This document shows positions 6,961 to 26,955 of a stretch of DNA of 27,470 bases, one piece after another. This DNA is from a virus: positions 1 to 27,470 of IMG/VR virus record IMGVR_UViG_3300042691_020527, one strand, 5' to 3'. The position numbers and the translations under genes were made by a program. Within the stretch, counting starts at the first letter, position 1. Every line of letters starts with the position of its first letter. The notes under the pieces were generated by a model. That model did no database searches and had not been told where the DNA came from. It saw only the letters and a list, made by a program, of their open reading frames with translations.

Positions 6961-7160
6961 TCCTCCATCGCTGAGGCTGCAAACAGTGCGCTTGCCCAGA
7001 ACAGAATGAGCAGCACGATGGCTTCCCACAGCTCTTCGGCAAACCAAGCGATAGCGAGACCGTCAAAGACGGCCAGAGTGGCAAAGCCCCACAGGTAGGG
7101 TACGGCTTTGTTGGAGTTGTCAGGTTCAATTTTCATGTAACTTTGGTAGTGTTTATTCAT
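6945..7160 (-). CDS. Small two-helix membrane protein, 71 aa
   Basis: Two hydrophobic helices at about residues 20-40 and 46-64 (LWEAIVLLILFWASALFAAS) are joined by a short acidic turn (AEELWE). The start at 7158-7160 overlaps the helicase C-part stop by 8 nt; an ATG eight codons later (MKIEPDNSNK) is an equally possible start. No Shine-Dalgarno sequence is obvious. It neighbours a second small membrane protein (6775-6960), so the pair may act together at the membrane. Family unknown. Confidence 0.6.
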   Translation of the reverse strand: MNKHYQSYMKIEPDNSNKAVPYLWGFATLAVFDGLAIAWFAEELWEAIVLLILFWASALFAASAMEEWKGR

Positions 7161-7737
7161 TGTGGAAGGTTGCAGTTTTGCCATGGAATCGCAGATTTGC
7201 ACTGACGCCACACGGCCCGTTGCGTTGGATGGGGATGCTAATCTCGCGGAACTCCGCCTCATCGGAGAGCTTCACAACCATCACGGCTGTAGCGTCTTGT
7301 CCGATTGCGCGGCTTTCGCGAGCCTTGCCCTGCTCATTTAGTTGCGTAATTGAGATGACTAAGCAACCTAATTCGATGCCGAGCAGTCGCAAACTACGGC
7401 TGACCTCAGCCACCTCACGCTCACGGCTGCTGTCCTTGCCTAGGTCGCACCTGACCAACTGGATATAGTCTACAAACAGCACACCAAGGCCATCCGGGGA
7501 CTTAGCCATAGCCCGTGCCGTGGCGCAGATGTTGGCGATATCGTACAGGTCGTCGCGCACAACCAAACGGCTGCTATTGAGCTTCTGGATGGCACTGTGG
7601 ACGCCCCTGATGTCACGCTCCAGCTTGGCTCCTTCAGCGAGGGTGCGTAGGCTGACGCTGCCTAGCCGGGCGACGAGCCGGTCGATGATCTGATTCGCTG
7701 GCATCTCAAGCGAGATGACGAGGATTCCTTTGTTCAT
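7153..7737 (-). CDS. dnaB: C-terminal part of a split DnaB-type replicative helicase, 194 aa
   Basis: The protein begins directly at the H1a region (ILVISLEM, residues 5-12). It then contains Walker B (VLFVDYIQLV, 86-95), the H3 segment (ELGCLVISITQLNEQGK, 122-138), the H4 segment (RESRAIGQDATAVMVV, 140-155) and the arginine-finger region (QRNGPCG, 171-177). The N-terminal domain and Walker A are absent; these lie in the separate gene 10115-10828. The two products together (237 + 194 aa) equal one normal DnaB in length and motif order. The start is fixed: a TAA immediately precedes the ATG in frame. It overlaps the methyltransferase frame by 32 nt. Alone it could not bind ATP normally, so it must act with the N-part, or be inactive. 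Confidence 0.85.
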   Translation of the reverse strand: MNKGILVISLEMPANQIIDRLVARLGSVSLRTLAEGAKLERDIRGVHSAIQKLNSSRLVVRDDLYDIANICATARAMAKSPDGLGVLFVDYIQLVRCDLGKDSSREREVAEVSRSLRLLGIELGCLVISITQLNEQGKARESRAIGQDATAVMVVKLSDEAEFREISIPIQRNGPCGVSANLRFHGKTATFHNE

Positions 7738-8497
7738 TTAGTAGTGTGGTAAACGCTAAAGCTGCTGTGACTGGGACGACTCCGTTTCCGAGGAGGCGCA
7801 TCCTGTCCACCCAATTGGCACCCCCGTCAGCCATTCGCACCAGGATGGGTTCAGTCGTCCCGTCTGACCAGTCCGTTCTTGGGCGACCGCATCCAGATAA
7901 AACTTGCTGACTCGATAAATGTGACTCTTGCTGCCAAGCGGACCACATCCTTTGTACTCGCTCGCTCTGATCGTCGGCCAAGATAAACACTCGTTTGCGC
8001 TGGTGAACAGCACCGCATTCAGCCGCGCTAAATATGCCCCACGACACTTTGTAACCCATTTCTTCCAGATCGCTAATGACGCTGGAGAGTCCCAACGAGA
8101 TGTGTCCTTCGACGTTCTCGAAGAAGCAGACTCTGGGTCGCATGGCAGCAATTCCATCTGCGATCCAAGGCCACAAGTGTCTTGGGTCGTCCTTACCGGC
8201 TCGCTTGCCTGCTGCACTGAATGGCTGGCAGGGATAACCACCAGTAAGGATGTCCACTCGGTCTCGAAAACTTTCCCAAGGGAAGGTTTTAAGATCCGTC
8301 CAAACAGGTGCTGCGTCCATGAGTCCCGCTTCCATTTTTGCAACCAAGTTCGCAATGGCGAAGGCTTCGATCTCACAAAGAGCGACTGAGCGCAAAGCTG
8401 GGAGGACTCGTTTAAGTCCAAGTTCAATGCCTCCGTAGCCTGCACAGAGGCCAACGTGTGTAATTGTTTTGGCAGTATCCACATTAGCGTGTTCCAT
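7706..8497 (-). CDS. dcm: DNA (cytosine-5)-methyltransferase, 263 aa
   Basis: It transfers a methyl group from S-adenosylmethionine to C5 of cytosine. Visible motifs are I (GLCAGYGGIELGL, 17-29), IV with catalytic C90 (GGYPCQPFSAAGK), VI (ENVEGH, 127-132), VIII (QRKRVFI, 166-172) and X (RLLGNGVVPVTAA, 234-246). It is short for the family, with only about 65 residues for target recognition. The start is the ATG at 8495-8497, overlapping the upstream stop by 14 nt. No restriction enzyme gene is adjacent, so it is an orphan enzyme, probably protecting phage DNA or altering regulation. The 3' part is also open and protein-like in the +1 frame (7756-7989). The gene ends inside the helicase C-part. 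Confidence 0.93.
   Translation of the reverse strand: MEHANVDTAKTITHVGLCAGYGGIELGLKRVLPALRSVALCEIEAFAIANLVAKMEAGLMDAAPVWTDLKTFPWESFRDRVDILTGGYPCQPFSAAGKRAGKDDPRHLWPWIADGIAAMRPRVCFFENVEGHISLGLSSVISDLEEMGYKVSWGIFSAAECGAVHQRKRVFILADDQSERVQRMWSAWQQESHLSSQQVLSGCGRPRTDWSDGTTEPILVRMADGGANWVDRMRLLGNGVVPVTAALAFTTLLNEQRNPRHLA
7756..7989 (-). other. Overprinted alternative C-terminus in the methyltransferase gene (+1 frame)
   Basis: In the +1 frame relative to the methyltransferase, 77 codons ending at TAG (7756-7758) read SWPTIRASEYKGCGPLGSKS, then RLNPSWCEWLTGVPIGWTG, then SSETESS. This strongly resembles the C-terminus typical of many phage cytosine methyltransferases and small companions (WPTP..A..YKG, LNPxWVEWLMGxPxGWT, SETxSS). 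The frame is open back to 8484. It could be translated by a +1 frameshift after motif VIII, from an internal start, or be a relic. Its stop lies 18 nt before the helicase C-part start, so there is no overlap with that gene. The family assignment is from memory. Confidence 0.5.
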
Positions 8498-8726
8498 TAC
8501 CAGGCCGTGCCGAAGTGTGCGAGTGCTGGCCAGTGTACGGCTCAAGCACATACTTCACCTCGATAAGATCCGTCGATTGATTCTCCGGCAGTAGCATGAG
8601 TGCCTCCATCTTGGAGCCGAGTGCGTCTTTCGGGCCAACACAGATGATGTCCTGCGTGCGCTTGGGGCGGGGCAGCTCCACGTCTTGCAGGACGTTTGTA
8701 CGGCGGATGAGTACCCAGTCGCTCAT
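8484..8726 (-). CDS. Unknown small protein, 80 aa
   Basis: The start is the ATG at 8724-8726, preceded by GGGAGGACTAAC, one of the better Shine-Dalgarno sequences in the window. The N-terminus (MSDWVLIRRTNVLQDVELPR) is beta-type and a short hydrophobic helix follows (KMEALMLLPEN). The C-terminus (TGQHSHTSARPGNGTR) is polar and overlaps the methyltransferase start. It sits in the block that separates the two helicase genes. No family is recognised and no endonuclease motif (LAGLIDADG, GIY-YIG, HNH) is visible. Confidence 0.65.
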   Translation of the reverse strand: MSDWVLIRRTNVLQDVELPRPKRTQDIICVGPKDALGSKMEALMLLPENQSTDLIEVKYVLEPYTGQHSHTSARPGNGTR

Positions 8727-8727
8727 G

Positions 8728-9036
8728 TTAGTCCTCCCATCTGTTGTATGAGTTTTTCTTTTGTTCTGCGTCGCGCAAACGAAAGAAGGCGGCACTCTCA
8801 AACCAGTTCAGCAAAAACAATCCGATTCCAGAAACTCTACGTTTCTTGTGTCTTGCTGCATGTGAAAGCAACCACTTATCTGCCTTCAGCATCTCTTTGT
8901 AAACAGTCTCTTCTCCGTATCTGTTGATGGCAAGATCAAGAATGTCTTTTGGGCAGCGAGTGCATCCATCAGTCATTAAAAACTCCATCCCGTAAATCTG
9001 ATCTCGCAATGTTGCGTCACTTAGTTCGTTGCTCAT
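8728..9036 (-). CDS. Phage protein with a W-A-x-RRK-GM-RFL-NW-type C-terminal motif, 102 aa
   Basis: The start is the ATG at 9034-9036 with GGGAGGAAGC upstream. The core INRYGEETVYKEMLKADKWL, then RHKKRRVSGIGLFLLNWFES matches the C-terminal domain of the 10806-11363 protein (IIYGEKTVEQELWKAHAWIE, then HRRKTARGMGRFLNGWLSRA). Such ends occur in phage replication-associated and DNA-binding proteins, from general familiarity. A CTRC pair lies at residues 25-28. It overlaps the exonuclease stop by four bases. A basic DNA- or protein-binding module is inferred. Confidence 0.7.
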   Translation of the reverse strand: MSNELSDATLRDQIYGMEFLMTDGCTRCPKDILDLAINRYGEETVYKEMLKADKWLLSHAARHKKRRVSGIGLFLLNWFESAAFFRLRDAEQKKNSYNRWED

Positions 9037-9812
9037 GCTTCCTCCCATCTACGCGGCAGCATCACGCGCATCGTTGGTGGACCAGGCCACACGTTTTGGT
9101 CGAGGCACAGCTTGTACTGCGACAGTGTCACGTCGAGCTGCTGGTTAGCAATGTCGATGAGTTCGCTCGACGCCTTCACCCACTGCGAGAGATGGGGCGC
9201 TTGCATATCGACGACGAGGAAGTAGAAGTCGATGTCCTCTTGGCCGGTGATCTGCTCAAGACCGTAGGTGTACCAAGCGGCCTGCTTGTCGTAGCCAAAC
9301 CCAAAGAACTTGTGGTCGAACTTAGACCAGTCGCTGGTCGTCTTAAGGTCAACGATAGCCGGACGACCCTTGATCTCGGTTATCATGTCCGGCCTGCCCT
9401 TGCACTGCACGCCGTCGCGCTCCCAGAACATGGACGCTTCGATCACCTTCGCTGCTGTCACCATCTCAAGGAGCGGCTCCACGGCAGCACAGGCACCCTC
9501 TACACGCGCCCCTTCATCCTCGTTGAGAATGACCTTGCCAATGTTAGCCTGGCAAAAGTTCTCCCAGATGAGCTTGCCTTCTTTCGTGCGACGGTCGCAC
9601 GCTGGAGCGATAGCGTAGTCACAGCGCCCCTCCAGCGCCAGGCTATGGACGAGTGTGCCAAGTTCCATCTCGCGGGATGGCTTCCACTCTTGGCTCTCCT
9701 TCCACTTGTAGTACGAGGGACACACAGCAAATGCGTCGAGGCTGTGTTTACTCAGGCCGTGCATCGCACGGTAAGTTGTCATTTCGAGGTTTTGTAATAG
9801 CTCTGTTTTCAT
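9033..9812 (-). CDS. RecE/RecB-like PD-(D/E)XK exonuclease, 259 aa
   Basis: The start is set at the ATG at 9810-9812 (MKTELLQNLEMTTYRAMHGL); the reading upstream is a shadow. Conserved nuclease features are GTLVH (52-56), GRPDMI (139-144), VDLKTT (154-159, with catalytic Asp and Lys) and the downstream Gln motif YDKQAAWY (174-181). This is the exodeoxyribonuclease VIII / PDDEXK nuclease layout used for 5'-3' resection before single-strand annealing. Length is normal for a free-standing phage enzyme. With the SSB-like protein and resolvase it forms a recombination set. No RecT/Beta-type annealase gene is visible in the window. Confidence 0.88.
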   Translation of the reverse strand: MKTELLQNLEMTTYRAMHGLSKHSLDAFAVCPSYYKWKESQEWKPSREMELGTLVHSLALEGRCDYAIAPACDRRTKEGKLIWENFCQANIGKVILNEDEGARVEGACAAVEPLLEMVTAAKVIEASMFWERDGVQCKGRPDMITEIKGRPAIVDLKTTSDWSKFDHKFFGFGYDKQAAWYTYGLEQITGQEDIDFYFLVVDMQAPHLSQWVKASSELIDIANQQLDVTLSQYKLCLDQNVWPGPPTMRVMLPRRWEEA

Positions 9813-9816
9813 ATTG

Positions 9817-10128
9817 TTATGGGTTGATTTCAAGCGCACCGCAGCCAACGATTCTGCCGGCTCCGTCACGGATGAGTTTTGTTGGACTAGCCAAATCTGT
9901 TCTGGCTGGCAACGCCGTTCTGACGTATGCCGGGACGATGTACAGTATCCCGTCCATAGGGTCAGGCAGGTTGGAGACTTTGCTCTCTTTGCAGCACATG
10001 ATCGGCACACCGTCAGCGTCTGCCACTTTGGACAAGTGACTATGCACTTTGACGGACTGTCCGCTTGGTTCCACGATCCCGTAGCCAGTGATGGCTATGT
10101 CGTGAGGAGTAAGGTTAATTAGTTTCAT
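9817..10128 (-). CDS. Conserved phage protein of the MKLINLTPHxI family, 103 aa
   Basis: The N-terminus MKLINLTPHDIAITGYG, the middle LPDPMDGILYIVPAYVRTAL and the C-terminus LIRDGAGRIVGCGAL fit a widespread small phage and actinobacterial family of unknown function. It is predicted all-beta and cytoplasmic. Its ATG lies inside the last codons of the helicase N-part (14-nt overlap), so it occupies the position where the helicase C-terminal half would normally follow. No catalytic motif is known. Confidence 0.8.
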   Translation of the reverse strand: MKLINLTPHDIAITGYGIVEPSGQSVKVHSHLSKVADADGVPIMCCKESKVSNLPDPMDGILYIVPAYVRTALPARTDLASPTKLIRDGAGRIVGCGALEINP

Positions 10129-10828
10129 TTATTAAGTTTGCAATTATGTTGAGTGCCAGCATGGTTTTGCCCGATTTGGTTTCACCACCGATGACGACAA
10201 AGTCTCCGTATCTGATCGGGCAGATGTTGTCGATAGCAGAGTAGCCAGTCTTTATCCGCATCGACTCGTCATCGCCTGTTTCGTAGCGGTTGAGCGCATT
10301 AAGCAGGAGTGCCTTCGTGTCCATCACTTTCGGTGGAGCAAGCTCCCGCGACAGACTCTCCACCTTCATCACGACATCGCTCAGTAGCTCAGGCGTCTGC
10401 ACGGTTGAGTCGCCAATCGCCATGAGCACCTCATGTGCGACATGTTGCAAGGTGCGCCGCTTCGCCGTGGACTTGACGATCTCGATAAGCTCGCCAATCG
10501 CGCCGGCAATAGGCATGATGGTGTATAGGTCGCTTAGTTCATGGAACTGGGTTGTTGGCAGCGTCTCCCGGCACTTCTCAAAAACCACACGAATTTCTGA
10601 CGAAGCGTTGCGGCTCTGCTGCTGTAGAATGATCTCGCATACCCGGTGACTGAGCGGATCAAAGATGTCTGCCACCTTGAAGTTCTTCTCGCTAATGTGG
10701 TGAAGGAACACCTCAGGATGGTTGAGCGCAATCGACGCTATCCCACGTTCAGCCTCGGTTGCAGTCGGCACCACCGTGTCAGGCGGCAACTCCACCGGCC
10801 TGCGCCTACCAGCTTTCTTGGGTTCCAT
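10115..10828 (-). CDS. dnaB: N-terminal part of a split DnaB-type replicative helicase, 237 aa
   Basis: Residues 20-130 match the helical DnaB N-terminal (primase-interacting) domain (TEAERGIASIALNHPEVFLH, then DIFDPLSHRVCEII). A linker and the start of the RecA-like domain follow (IKTGYSAIDNICPIRYGDFV). Walker A is GETKSGKT (215-222), and the protein stops 15 residues later, after LNIIANLINETN. Walker B and everything beyond is missing and is found in the gene 7153-7737. TAA at 10115-10117 is a clean stop overlapped by the next gene. The start overlaps the upstream gene by 23 nt; the leader TTACTGACTACAA lacks a Shine-Dalgarno sequence. Function as a helicase would require both halves to assemble. 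Confidence 0.87.
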   Translation of the reverse strand: MEPKKAGRRRPVELPPDTVVPTATEAERGIASIALNHPEVFLHHISEKNFKVADIFDPLSHRVCEIILQQQSRNASSEIRVVFEKCRETLPTTQFHELSDLYTIMPIAGAIGELIEIVKSTAKRRTLQHVAHEVLMAIGDSTVQTPELLSDVVMKVESLSRELAPPKVMDTKALLLNALNRYETGDDESMRIKTGYSAIDNICPIRYGDFVVIGGETKSGKTMLALNIIANLINETN

Positions 10829-17557: not shown

Positions 17558-18217
17558 TTATTGACCTGTTAGTGCATTCCATTCAGCCATTAGCGCAGGT
17601 GGTATTGCGCCTGGCCCCCTCCATCCGCGCTGCCTTAAAAACTCAGAAAGAGTCATGGCTGGAGTTGTTGCATCTTGAGCTGCGTATTGTGGCTGTGCCT
17701 GTGGTGGCGTCACTGGTTGAGGCGAAAAACCGTCGTCACTCAAATTCAAAATATCATCTATTCCTTTTTCTATAGACCCAAGGTTTGTTGGCATTCTTTT
17801 GGGGCCATGTGCCGCATTAACCAACTGCAACTTATTCTGCTGCTGTAGCCTTCCACCAACGGCCAAGTTGAGGAAGTCGTTGCCGGCGCGGATGCCGCCA
17901 TCCATCGAAAGCTTTCTTGCCTCACCAATCAACTGCTGTGACTGCTCTGGAGTGTATCCAAGCATTGATTGCCCAACCTTATTGTTAAGGAAGTTCTCGT
18001 AGGACTTATTCTGCGATTCAAGCTGCTTCGCCTCTTTCATGTAGCTGGCCACTGACGACGCCGCACTCGTAAGCCCCTGCGCGATGCCCTGGCCCATTGC
18101 CATCATGCCCTTCCCCTCGATCTCCCCGGCTCTAGCGTAAGCGTCTGCAATTCCCTGCCCCATCATGCTCATCGCCTGAGGAGCTGGCGTATTAAAAAGT
18201 TCACGGGGTTTTGCCAT
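17558..18217 (-). CDS. Ala/Gly/Met-rich virion-associated protein, 219 aa
   Basis: The N-terminal 60 residues are Ala/Gly/Met-rich amphipathic helix (APQAMSMMGQGIADAYARAG, MGQGIAQGLTSAASSVA), typical of small internal core proteins. A charged helix and a Pro/Gln linker (QPVTPPQAQPQYAAQDATT) follow. A compact C-terminal motif ends the protein (MTLSEFLRQRGWRGPGAIPP). It neighbours other internal virion genes and overlaps the YkgJ-like stop by 17 nt. The function is inferred from position only. Confidence 0.65.
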   Translation of the reverse strand: MAKPRELFNTPAPQAMSMMGQGIADAYARAGEIEGKGMMAMGQGIAQGLTSAASSVASYMKEAKQLESQNKSYENFLNNKVGQSMLGYTPEQSQQLIGEARKLSMDGGIRAGNDFLNLAVGGRLQQQNKLQLVNAAHGPKRMPTNLGSIEKGIDDILNLSDDGFSPQPVTPPQAQPQYAAQDATTPAMTLSEFLRQRGWRGPGAIPPALMAEWNALTGQ

Positions 18218-18533
18218 AAAATTTAGTTCTAGCTTCTAGGCAGAGAGGACTGCCCTTTTCAAACTTCTTGCAGGCCAATGGCCTATGTTCATAGATTGTA
18301 CACGAAACTTCCTGCCCCACAACCCCAGATAACGCCACACAGCGCGTTCCAACGCACTTAAGCAGTGGCAAATCATCTCGGATAAACTCAGGTGGGATAT
18401 TGACTGCATCTGATCTATCCTTTCGCAGAATCGGCCAACTGGCCTTGTGGCTGCAACACGCCCCGCACTTTTGGCAATCCAGTTCGCATGTTGCAGTATT
18501 CAAACTTTGGCTCTTCGTGGAGGACATGCTCAT
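18201..18533 (-). CDS. YkgJ-family cysteine-cluster protein, 110 aa
   Basis: The cysteine pattern is CELDCQKCGACC (C16, C20, C23, C26, C27), C60/C65, C78, then YEHRPLAC (C88) and C98. This is the YkgJ/zinc- or Fe-S-binding cluster layout, including the RPxxC phrase. The protein is cytoplasmic with no signal peptide. Because the first cysteines are needed, it must overlap the sulfur-gene frame by at least 74 nt, and by 119 nt from the ATG at 18533. An ATG two codons later is an alternative start. Pairing with a PAPS-reductase-family gene suggests a shared metal or sulfur task. Its exact chemistry is unknown. Confidence 0.8.
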   Translation of the reverse strand: MSMSSTKSQSLNTATCELDCQKCGACCSHKASWPILRKDRSDAVNIPPEFIRDDLPLLKCVGTRCVALSGVVGQEVSCTIYEHRPLACKKFEKGSPLCLEARTKFYGKTP

Positions 18534-19257
18534 GCAGGTTCTCTACGTCGATCTGTAGCTTTGGGCAATGCACAAATTTGGATTCCCGGCGGTCGATGCA
18601 CCGAAAACAGGCATGAACATAGTCACTGTTCATGTGCTTGTCTGGCTTGGACACAACATCGGTGTCGTACCTGTTTTGGTCGTACTTGACGTTGTTTGAA
18701 GTGATATACAGCGAGATGTCTGCGTCAGTCCATTCCCGCAGCGGAAACCACATCTCGGTGCCAATTTCCAGCAGTTTCATGTCTAGCATCAGCGGCACTG
18801 CACCAGTAAGTGGATCTTCATCACTGCTCTTGTGGCCGCACAGCAAAACATCAAAGTTGCTTGCAATGTGCGCCTTAGGACGATTAAGCCACTCCTTACC
18901 GCATACCCACGGTTTGGTAAGATCCACAACCTCCGTCCCCCTCATCACCTTCAGTGTTCCTGTCCCAATCGAATATGTTTCACAAACGTCAATCCGGTTC
19001 TTTCCGTGAGTTAAAGCAATCGACATTGGCACCCAGTCGTGGACTGTGAGCTTAAGCTCCTCTTGCACTTCATGGTGATGCTTATACTTGTGAGATAGAA
19101 ACGGCAGTTTGAAGTGGATGACTTCTATGTCTGGTCGAATCTTTAGAGCCAGATCCAACAGCACGGTGGAGTCTTTACCTCCACTCCAAAGCACGGCAGG
19201 CCGTTTGGCGTGTTTAAGCGCCTTGTTGATTATGGTTATGGCAGATGCAGTGTTCAT
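18415..19257 (-). CDS. PAPS reductase / adenine-nucleotide alpha-hydrolase family protein, 280 aa
   Basis: The PP-loop SGGKDS (25-30, within AVLWSGGKDSTVLLDLAL) binds and adenylates or cleaves the alpha-beta phosphate. WFPLREWTDADISLYI (170-185) is the family's conserved distal block. A CxxC plus C group (C217, C220, C231) may hold a metal or Fe-S cluster. Related proteins include sulfate-assimilation reductases, DndC-type DNA sulfur-modification enzymes and tRNA thiolation enzymes; the phage substrate is not determined. No dndB/D/E genes are nearby. The gene lies between two virion genes, as a cargo gene. Its ATG touches the 19257 stop of the upstream gene. Confidence 0.85.
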   Translation of the reverse strand: MNTASAITIINKALKHAKRPAVLWSGGKDSTVLLDLALKIRPDIEVIHFKLPFLSHKYKHHHEVQEELKLTVHDWVPMSIALTHGKNRIDVCETYSIGTGTLKVMRGTEVVDLTKPWVCGKEWLNRPKAHIASNFDVLLCGHKSSDEDPLTGAVPLMLDMKLLEIGTEMWFPLREWTDADISLYITSNNVKYDQNRYDTDVVSKPDKHMNSDYVHACFRCIDRRESKFVHCPKLQIDVENLHEHVLHEEPKFEYCNMRTGLPKVRGVLQPQGQLADSAKG

Positions 19258-24699: not shown

Positions 24700-26955
24700 T
24701 TATCGAGCTAGAGCGTACTTGCTTGGGTTCTCTGCGAAGGCTGCGAAAATGTAGGTGTCTCCACTTGCGCCATTAAAATCTCCACCAGTAGTTCTTAGTT
24801 TAAATCCGTTTGATAGCGCATCTAGTCGCACTATAGATGTTTCAAAATCGCCTAAGTTTGCATACAAATTGTCACTCGCGGCATTAAATAATGATCTTGA
24901 AGAATCAATTAGCGCCCAATTTCCAGTTGTGTTTGTTCGTTTAATCATCACAAACCTCGGCCTGAACCCACAGAACACAAACGGCCCGTCGGGCAGTCCA
25001 TTTGCCGTGTAGCTGCCAAAGCGGGAGAAGCCTGCGATCTCAGCGAAGCAGTAGGCGACGTAACTAACACCAGAAGCGTTGACATCTGCGGATGTGCCAA
25101 CAGTAAACACGCTTGATGTTGGAGCAGTACTAGCCCACACCGTCGTGGCAGCGGCAGCTTGGTTTGGCAGGTTAAGTTGAATGCTGTTTGCAACCGGAAT
25201 TGACGTGTGGCGCACCTGCCAGTTGCTTGTAGCGCCAGTCTGCGACCGCTTCACGATGATCATCGCAGGAGCAACGCCCAAGTTGTGTGCAACCGTCCTG
25301 TCCACGCCTGTGCCGGCGTAGCTCACCACATCCAGCCCAGCGGTGATGCTTTCCCTCCACTGCCAAGCAATGTACGAGTTCGCATTCGCGTTGACTATCG
25401 TCGTGTCCGTGCCGAGGCTAAAGCCATCGCCGTTAAATGCTGTCAGCGTGCTTGCGTCGGTCGTCTCAGCAGACGTTGTGCTAGATGATAAATACTTGCC
25501 GGTTCCCCGCACAGAGTCGAACAGCGCATGATTCGTAGCGCCCGGTGTCCGTGACTTAATCCACACCAGATCCGGCTGGAACGACACACTGTTCACCGCA
25601 TTCGACAGTGACCGTGCAGCAGCGTTGCCCGTGTAGGTCGTCGCCGCCATGAAGTTCGCACCATTCACAATCGACGGTGTCGGCAGGTTGTTCGTGTTCA
25701 GTGCGCGGAAACCGGCGGGGGGCGTGTATGCGAAGGGGCGTTGGCCGAAGTTGGGCCGAAAGTTTGTGCTGCCGCTGGCATTGGTGCAAAACGCCGGAAC
25801 AAACTCTCCAGACAATCCGGTGTATGCGACACCCTGACTCACGTTGTTCTTGTAGAACTCAATCGTCCCCGCGTCAGCATTAAATGCAATGCCGATGGTA
25901 TCTGCCAGCCCGAATGCCGCGCCATACGCAACACCGCTTCCGCTGTTGGCTTTTAAACCAACAGACAAATAGCCATAGCCAGTCGCGGAAAGGGTAAATA
26001 CATCAACATCAGCAGGACGGCATACACCAACAATTACGGAGTCAAGAAATGGGGTTACAAAATTGCACTCCCAATACCACTTTCCACTTGACACTGCAAT
26101 GGTAGCTTTTCGCCCCATATTTGCGTTGAATCCGACGCTTAGGTTTCCATCAAGCGGCCCAGTGGAAGACGATCCAAGAAGCGGATTCAGCACCGCATAA
26201 TTCCCCCTACCATTCCCGCCGTCACTGTAGTTCACCGGGACATCGATCATGCTGTCGTATGTTGCCCCAGCCGTCAGTGACACGTTGTTCACCGTCCAGG
26301 TGTTGTTATTCCCCGAGCTATCGTTGCCCAGTGCCGCCACAGACGATGTGTTGGCAAACTTGAGGTAGAAGCCGTTCGCGCCGTAAGTGCCGCTGTACGG
26401 CCTCGGAGCCCACACGCCGGTGGACGAGTCAATCGCGCCAAACGAGGCTGGCGTCAGTGCCTGGCCGTCGATGAAGTGGACTTCTGTGAGGTAGCCGTCA
26501 ACAAAGTTATCTATACCTCGATTGGAAAAAATGTAATGTGTAGCGGCAGAATTTATTGCGGGAATAGTTCCTGTGTATGATAGAACTTCTAAGTTATTTA
26601 CAAATCCTTTAATGTTTGTACCGTTACTTCTAACAACTAAATGATAATAAGCAGACGGATCTCGAAATACAGCAGTGCTTGTTGCTACTTCTACATTTCC
26701 AAGTGCAAAAATTAAATTGTTTGTTGGGCTAAACGCAAACGCATTTCCACCTGGCGCAGAGCTGAATATTGAATTCCAAACGCCTAATCCTCCACGCTTT
26801 ACCCATCCAGACCATGTCCATGTTGTATTGCTTGTTGGTGTAATAAACGTCCTGCTCAAGTAGGCAGACGCACTCGACCGAAACCGAAGTGAGTTCGTGA
26901 TGAAACTTGACCCGCCTCTGATACTGCCGAGTAGTGATAACATAGAAGAGAACAT
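24700..26955 (-). CDS. Large tail fibre/spike with LamG-, SPRY- and DUF7483-like domains, 751 aa
   Basis: Residues 20-165 resemble a LamG/concanavalin-type fold (WTWSGWVKRGGLGVWNSIFS; YYHLVVRSNGTNIKGFVNNL; VDGYLTEVHFIDGQAL). Residues 250-420 resemble a SPRY/B30.2 domain (SGKWYWECNFV; DTIGIAFNADAGTIEFYKNN). Residues 430-751 contain repeated blocks of a DUF7483-like type (FQPDLVWIKSRTP; VAPAMIIVKRSQTGATSNWQ; FRPRFVMIKRTNTTGNWALI). The combination suits a receptor-binding or surface-adhesion tail protein. The sequence encoding the first third (about 26480-26955) is A+T richer than the rest, a mosaic sign. The short basic/hydrophobic N-terminus probably attaches it to the tail. Confidence 0.82.
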   Translation of the reverse strand: MFSSMLSLLGSIRGGSSFITNSLRFRSSASAYLSRTFITPTSNTTWTWSGWVKRGGLGVWNSIFSSAPGGNAFAFSPTNNLIFALGNVEVATSTAVFRDPSAYYHLVVRSNGTNIKGFVNNLEVLSYTGTIPAINSAATHYIFSNRGIDNFVDGYLTEVHFIDGQALTPASFGAIDSSTGVWAPRPYSGTYGANGFYLKFANTSSVAALGNDSSGNNNTWTVNNVSLTAGATYDSMIDVPVNYSDGGNGRGNYAVLNPLLGSSSTGPLDGNLSVGFNANMGRKATIAVSSGKWYWECNFVTPFLDSVIVGVCRPADVDVFTLSATGYGYLSVGLKANSGSGVAYGAAFGLADTIGIAFNADAGTIEFYKNNVSQGVAYTGLSGEFVPAFCTNASGSTNFRPNFGQRPFAYTPPAGFRALNTNNLPTPSIVNGANFMAATTYTGNAAARSLSNAVNSVSFQPDLVWIKSRTPGATNHALFDSVRGTGKYLSSSTTSAETTDASTLTAFNGDGFSLGTDTTIVNANANSYIAWQWRESITAGLDVVSYAGTGVDRTVAHNLGVAPAMIIVKRSQTGATSNWQVRHTSIPVANSIQLNLPNQAAAATTVWASTAPTSSVFTVGTSADVNASGVSYVAYCFAEIAGFSRFGSYTANGLPDGPFVFCGFRPRFVMIKRTNTTGNWALIDSSRSLFNAASDNLYANLGDFETSIVRLDALSNGFKLRTTGGDFNGASGDTYIFAAFAENPSKYALAR

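What the first reader, a model, noticed from the sequence alone, without database searches (positions are those of the whole stretch)
7153..10828. Replicative DnaB-type helicase split into two genes separated by 2.4 kb
The 10115-10828 product carries the DnaB N-terminal domain and Walker A (GETKSGKT) and stops 15 residues later. The 7153-7737 product begins at the next strand (ILVISLEM) and holds Walker B, H3, H4 and the arginine-finger region. Together they make about 431 residues, one normal DnaB, and the break falls in a surface loop, where split proteins tolerate cuts. Five intact overlapping genes lie between. No intein or intron sequence is visible at either end. TTCATTTA occurs at both break points (10124-10131 and 7733-7740) with 10 of 11 bases matching over a longer stretch. 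Joining at this repeat puts the halves out of frame by one base, and both copies include a start codon, so it may only be start context. A two-protein helicase assembling in trans would be unusual.
Basis: partly seen in the sequence, partly recalled or inferred. Interest (0 to 1): 0.92.

Follow-up and report, generated by a model that had tools for sequence, protein, structure and literature searches.

The report
Phage replicative helicase in two pieces
A large family of uncultivated phages makes its DNA-unwinding ring enzyme (a DnaB-type helicase) as two separate proteins, cut through the middle of the ATP-burning domain, so the active site can only form when the two pieces come together.

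Summary
The protein at 10115-10828(-) carries the DnaB N-terminal domain and Walker A and stops 15 residues after GKT. The protein at 7153-7737(-) starts at the next strand and carries every remaining DnaB motif. Profiles meet almost exactly at the break (DnaB_C 2-45 and 49-255; Geobacillus DnaB residues 10-229 and 233-440).

It is not a local accident. I recovered 84 distinct pairs from viral contigs and one bacterial MAG contig. All are split here and none is intact, down to 34% identity in the N-half. In 72 complete pairs the C-half always starts with ATG, 8 residues before SLEM. Both halves are under strong purifying selection (dN/dS about 0.05 and 0.04) and diverge together (r=0.97). All 32 records searched, three with circular end overlaps, hold these two halves and no other DnaB.

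No intein, intron or homing-enzyme signature explains the split. Best reading: one ancient gene fission, with two polypeptides assembling into a DnaB-like ring whose ATPase site is built from both. Phage genes-in-pieces are known (T4-like topoisomerase, RNR, polymerase); I found no report for a replicative helicase without an intein. Assembly and activity are inferred.

The parts
10115..10828 (-). N-half of the DnaB helicase: N-terminal domain, linker, first core strand, Walker A (GETKSGKT) and the following helix; 237 aa
   Evidence: phrog_19 155-377, DnaB_C 2-45; aligns to 2r6a residues 10-229; Foldseek best hits DnaB
7153..7737 (-). C-half of the DnaB helicase: SLEM (catalytic Glu), Walker B (FVDYIQL), H3 (ITQLNE), H4 (RESRAIGQDA), arginine finger (QRNGPCG); 194 aa
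   Evidence: DnaB_C 49-255, phrog_19 381-580; aligns to 2r6a residues 233-440; Foldseek best hits DnaB
10115..10131 (-). End of the N-half, overlapping the start of the next gene (ATAAATGAAACTAATTAA)
   Evidence: sequence; tail variable among relatives, 11-37 aa after GKT
7733..7740 (-). Start of the C-half (CTAAATGAAC), inside the end of the methyltransferase ORF
   Evidence: sequence; ATG at the homologous position in 72/72 complete pairs
9817..10128 (-). Small conserved gene (MKLINLTPHDIAI...), function unknown, next to the N-half in most relatives
   Evidence: phrog_30542; cluster 2
9033..9812 (-). RecE/exonuclease VIII-like PDDEXK nuclease, between the halves in all 71 surveyed loci
   Evidence: phrog_412 6e-56, PF12684 9e-23; cluster 0
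8728..9048 (-). Small ORF of unknown function between the halves
   Evidence: no Pfam or PHROG match at the limits used
8484..8726 (-). Small ORF of unknown function between the halves
   Evidence: no Pfam or PHROG match; related ORFs in most loci (cluster 1)
7706..8551 (-). Cytosine-5 DNA methyltransferase, variable cargo just upstream of the C-half
   Evidence: PF00145 4e-33, phrog_363 3e-56; in 18 loci of the survey, replaced by a Mom-like gene in 6

Best explanation
This is the phage's replicative helicase, a DnaB (SF4) enzyme encoded by two genes after a single ancient gene fission. The cut lies in the loop between the helix after Walker A and the next beta strand of the RecA-like ATPase core. 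SHOWN: two separate ORFs, conserved split, catalytic residues conserved in both halves, purifying selection, co-divergence, and no other DnaB in the records searched. INFERRED: both proteins come from one polycistronic message. The N-half supplies the N-terminal collar, strand 1, the P-loop and its helix; the C-half supplies the rest of the core. They fold together into one DnaB-like protomer and six such pairs form the ring, so every ATP site needs both polypeptides of a protomer plus the arginine finger of the neighbour's C-half. Variable cargo (methyltransferase, Mom-like gene, one HNH gene) has accumulated between the halves beside a fixed exonuclease gene.
For: Complementary profile coverage with about 3 residues missing. 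84 distinct pairs split, 0 intact. In 72 complete pairs: ATG start 72/72; Walker A, SLEM, Walker B, H4 and arginine finger in 72/72; 8 residues from start to SLEM in 72/72, and 13+8=21 equals the GKT-to-SLEM spacing of six intact phage DnaBs. dN/dS about 0.05 and 0.04, distance correlation 0.97. Only two DnaB_C matches in each of 32 records. Split family monophyletic, 100/100. Both AlphaFold models match DnaB best, and the P-loop segment of the N-half is poorly formed alone.
Against: No direct evidence of complex formation, helicase activity or even expression. Distance correlation is expected for any two linked vertically inherited genes. The C-half start lacks a Shine-Dalgarno in 65 of 72 loci, though most genes checked in the window also lack one. 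N-half tails of up to 37 residues after GKT occur in some lineages and their role is unknown.
Confidence: 0.84

Rival explanations
1. The halves act through the host DnaB: one or both join, recruit or poison the host's helicase ring as adaptors instead of forming a ring of their own.
For: The N-half has an intact DnaB N-terminal domain, which in other systems mediates ring and primase contacts (established knowledge). The one fully scanned genome showed no polymerase or primase, so the phage must use host replication proteins.
Against: An adaptor would not need Walker A in one half and the catalytic Glu, Walker B, H3, H4 and arginine finger in the other, all conserved in 72/72 pairs under dN/dS about 0.05. 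Both halves always occur together where the contig covers both.
Confidence: 0.08
2. The two coding parts are joined at the RNA level, by cis- or trans-splicing of an intron whose interior holds the intervening genes.
For: Co-directional genes, and a joined product would have the spacing of an intact DnaB.
Against: No Rfam intron in the window or in eight relatives. Mean nucleotide identity between lineages drops from 72% inside the C-half start to 34% just upstream, and is 32% after the N-half stop, so there are no conserved intron ends. Unrelated genes abut the C-half in different loci. The C-half has its own ATG in 72/72.
Confidence: 0.03
3. The chains are joined after translation by a split intein or another ligation.
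For: gp41 helicase genes broken by split inteins are known (PMC10882715).
Against: The N-half ends 11-37 residues after GKT and the C-half starts 8 residues before SLEM: no space for intein halves. Flanking ORFs match other families or nothing.
Confidence: 0.02
4. The gene is a decaying remnant, or the split is an assembly artefact, and the phage uses host DnaB.
For: Broken genes occur in phages; one relative (L353) shows a frame change inside the N-half.
Against: The same split in 84 distinct pairs from many samples with N-half distances up to 0.66; strong purifying selection on both halves.
Confidence: 0.03

Closest known systems
DnaB / phage Ban-type replicative helicase (SF4; PF00772 + PF03796, phrog_19; PDB 2r6a, 4esv, 7t20)
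   Same: N-terminal domain, Walker A, SLEM, Walker B, H3, H4 and arginine finger in the same order with the same spacing across the break
   Different: Two polypeptides from two genes 1.3-3.8 kb apart, cut between Walker A and the catalytic Glu; no intact relative within the family
Phage genes-in-pieces: Aeh1 NrdA, T4 topoisomerase gp39/gp60, gene 43A/43B of T4-like Aeromonas phages (PMC2988022)
   Same: A replication-related phage enzyme split into separately translated pieces with no intein; for NrdA and gene 43 the pieces are reported to give a functional enzyme
   Different: Different enzyme; those splits are isolated cases linked to homing endonucleases or an untranslated insert, here the split is family-wide and only one relative has an HNH gene in the gap
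Fractured genes with split inteins, e.g. gp41-1 from a gp41 DNA helicase (PMC10882715)
   Same: A phage DnaB-like helicase gene broken into separated pieces
   Different: Those pieces carry trans-splicing intein halves; none is present here

Membership tests
DnaB-type (SF4) replicative helicase | DnaB N-terminal domain | tested here: met
   phrog_19 from position 155; 2r6a residues 10-229; Foldseek match to isolated DnaB N-terminal domains 2r5u, TM 0.77-0.83 by target; Pfam DnaB below cut-off (15.4 vs 23 bits)
DnaB-type (SF4) replicative helicase | Walker A, catalytic Glu, Walker B, H3, H4 and arginine finger | tested here: met
   Walker A in N-half and the other motifs in C-half; Walker A, SLEM, Walker B, H4 and arginine finger in 72/72 pairs, H3 as [SG]ITQLNE in 63 and AITQLNE in the sequences read of the deepest clade
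DnaB-type (SF4) replicative helicase | RecA-like core on one continuous chain (usual, not part of the sequence definition) | tested here: not met
   84/84 distinct pairs split; C-half has its own ATG
DnaB-type (SF4) replicative helicase | Hexameric ring and 5'-3' unwinding | not testable with these tools
   No multimer prediction or experiment available
Phage genes-in-pieces | One ancestral gene now two ORFs, both kept under selection | tested here: met
Phage genes-in-pieces | Pieces reassemble to an active enzyme | not testable with these tools
   Needs biochemistry
Phage genes-in-pieces | Homing endonuclease gene between the pieces (typical, not required) | tested here: not met
   HNH only in L025 among gap ORF representatives
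Split-intein fractured gene | Intein halves fused to the pieces | tested here: not met
   Tails of 11-37 aa and start 8 aa before SLEM leave no space
Intron-split gene (group I/II) | Catalytic intron RNA with conserved ends | tested here: not met
   No Rfam match; no conserved flanks

The most novel reading that the evidence does not exclude
A ring helicase that is an obligate 6+6 assembly of two polypeptides with composite ATPase sites: P-loop from one gene, catalytic Glu and Walker B from the other. Such a design could act as a switch on replication, since no helicase exists until both genes, separated by variable cargo, are expressed.
Probability: 0.6. Interest if true: 0.85.

Novelty: new variant of a known kind. 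Interest (0 to 1): 0.76.

Why it matters
DnaB-family rings drive replication in bacteria and many phages, and I found no reported natural example cut inside the RecA-like ATPase core without an intein. A family-wide, long-lived natural split would show that the core tolerates a break between Walker A and the catalytic glutamate. It would give a ready-made two-part helicase for studying ring assembly, loading and control, and a naturally tested cut site. It also warns that automated annotation will list these phages as having partial or missing helicases.

Tried and rejected
Intact relatives were sought with C-half, N-half and exonuclease profiles in IMG/VR (7 protein scans), in GTDB genomes (1 scan; one hit, also split) and in named phages; the nearest intact enzymes are only about 27-36% identical. 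Each scan returns at most its best 80 loci, so weaker intact relatives could have been missed. The TTCATTTA repeat was rejected as a recombination scar (not conserved). Missing Shine-Dalgarno at the C-half start was not taken as evidence against translation because most genes checked in the window lack one too. Origin by a homing endonuclease was not supported, though an ancient, since-lost one cannot be excluded. Two-chain structure prediction was not possible with the tools. Papers: no report of a split replicative helicase without intein, but the library lacks most subscription papers, including the two primary papers on split NrdA and fractured genes.

Full report
OBSERVATION. The two ORFs exist as described. 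Read separately, each matches a complementary part of DnaB: Pfam DnaB_C columns 2-45 in the N-half and 49-255 in the C-half; PHROG 19 (DnaB-like replicative helicase) positions 155-377 and 381-580. Profile searches of solved structures place the N-half on residues 10-229 and the C-half on residues 233-440 of Geobacillus DnaB 2r6a. Only about three residues are missing, in the loop between the helix after Walker A and the next strand (predicted helix 220-236 in the N-half, strand 4-8 in the C-half).

CONSERVATION. Searches with either half in IMG/VR gave 100 or more stretches each. Wider searches extended the family to lineages whose N-halves differ by up to 0.66 and C-halves by up to 0.38 in protein distance. 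Pooling all fetched loci gave 84 distinct pairs, every one split and none intact; two intact phage helicases (HU1, TCUAN1) were correctly recognised as one ORF by the same procedure. In 72 complete pairs the C-half begins with ATG at the homologous residue in 72/72, while the N-half runs on for 11-37 residues after GKT. SLEM lies exactly 8 residues from the start in 72/72. Six intact phage DnaBs all have 21 residues between GKT and this motif, and the commonest split arrangement (13 + 8) also sums to 21. This is the geometry of a clean fission of one gene.

SELECTION AND CO-DIVERGENCE. Median dN/dS is 0.052 for the N-half and 0.039 for the C-half; protein distances of the two halves correlate at 0.97, although linked, vertically inherited genes would also correlate. 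Walker A is in all N-halves; SLEM, Walker B, H4 and the arginine-finger motif are in all C-halves. From established knowledge of this fold, neither half alone could hydrolyse ATP, since Walker A is on one chain and the catalytic glutamate, Walker B and arginine finger on the other. Keeping all of them makes sense mainly if the chains meet.

ONLY DnaB. In 24 records (the window and 23 relatives of 37-44 kb; PF03796 and PHROG 19) and 8 further records including the deepest clade (PF03796), each has exactly two matches, the two halves. Of six relatives whose ends were compared, three (41,887, 39,882 and 42,822 bases) carry exact end overlaps of 123-127 bases and so look circularly complete; in two of them the helicase locus spans the contig ends. 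A PHROG scan of 40 ORFs of the 41,887-base genome showed no other helicase among the families listed and no polymerase or stand-alone primase (the two longest ORFs were left out, and 25 of 29 matched families are shown).

WHAT LIES BETWEEN. The gap ranges from 1.3 to 3.8 kb. A RecE-like exonuclease gene lies between the halves in all 71 surveyed loci, usually with the small INLTPH gene and a small unknown gene; deeper lineages also have a deoxynucleoside monophosphate kinase. A variable slot just before the C-half holds a cytosine methyltransferase in 18 loci (as here) and a Mom-like DNA-modification gene in 6. Only L025 has an HNH endonuclease, so splitting by a homing endonuclease, the route discussed for T4-like phages, is not visible today.

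JOINING MECHANISMS. There is no space for intein halves. Rfam finds no intron in the window or in eight relatives. Between lineages, nucleotide identity is 72% just inside the C-half start but 34% just outside it and 32% after the N-half stop. Several unrelated upstream sequences precede the C-half. A splicing element would need conserved ends. In 68 of 72 loci an upstream ORF ends close to the C-half ATG, consistent with translational coupling (inference).

HISTORY. In a tree of 23 split representatives and 6 intact phage DnaBs, the split family is one side of a single branch with 100/100 support. The joining branch is very long, so no close intact relative is known. One fission followed by vertical inheritance is the simplest reading.

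STRUCTURE. AlphaFold2 models of each half match DnaB best in the PDB. The N-terminal domain of the N-half is confident (about 80-93 pLDDT), but its core segment alone is not (44-59 in most of residues 185-237), as expected of a fragment whose partner strands are on another chain; the shallow alignment may contribute.

MECHANISM AND NOVELTY. I conclude that the halves assemble in trans into a DnaB-like ring (confidence 0.84; assembly and activity not shown). Phage genes-in-pieces that reassemble are established for ribonucleotide reductase and DNA polymerase and inferred for T4 topoisomerase (PMC2988022), and split inteins from gp41 helicase genes are known (PMC10882715). A replicative helicase naturally cut inside its P-loop core, family-wide and without intein, was not found in the literature held. 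I call it a new variant of a known kind.

Noticed in passing
7706-8551 (-), and L041:7267-8004: A cargo slot just upstream of the C-half holds alternative DNA-modification genes: a cytosine-5 methyltransferase in 18 surveyed loci, a Mom-like gene (PF25680) in 6, another methyltransferase in L133. This looks like exchange of anti-restriction cargo at a fixed site.
   Followed up: partly
L025:6382-6804: An HNH endonuclease with a helix-turn-helix sits in the gap of one close relative only.
   Followed up: partly
L217 (JAFMIZ010000069.1): The only hit in bacterial genomes is a 13 kb contig of a Pedosphaera MAG, also split; a weak hint at a verrucomicrobial host, but it may be a mis-binned phage contig.
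   Followed up: no
18415-19257 (-) and 18201-18533 (-): A PAPS-reductase-domain protein overlaps a CxxCxxCC zinc/iron-chelating protein among the structural genes; role unknown.
   Followed up: no
whole window, - strand genes: Most of the genes checked lack a Shine-Dalgarno-like motif, as does the C-half start in 65 of 72 loci; the host may initiate translation mostly without it.
   Followed up: partly
24700-26955 (-): A 751-aa protein with a SPRY domain and DUF7483, likely virion or tail-associated.
   Followed up: no
L353:3-660: The N-half is interrupted by a frame change in this one contig; it may be a sequencing error or real decay.
   Followed up: no
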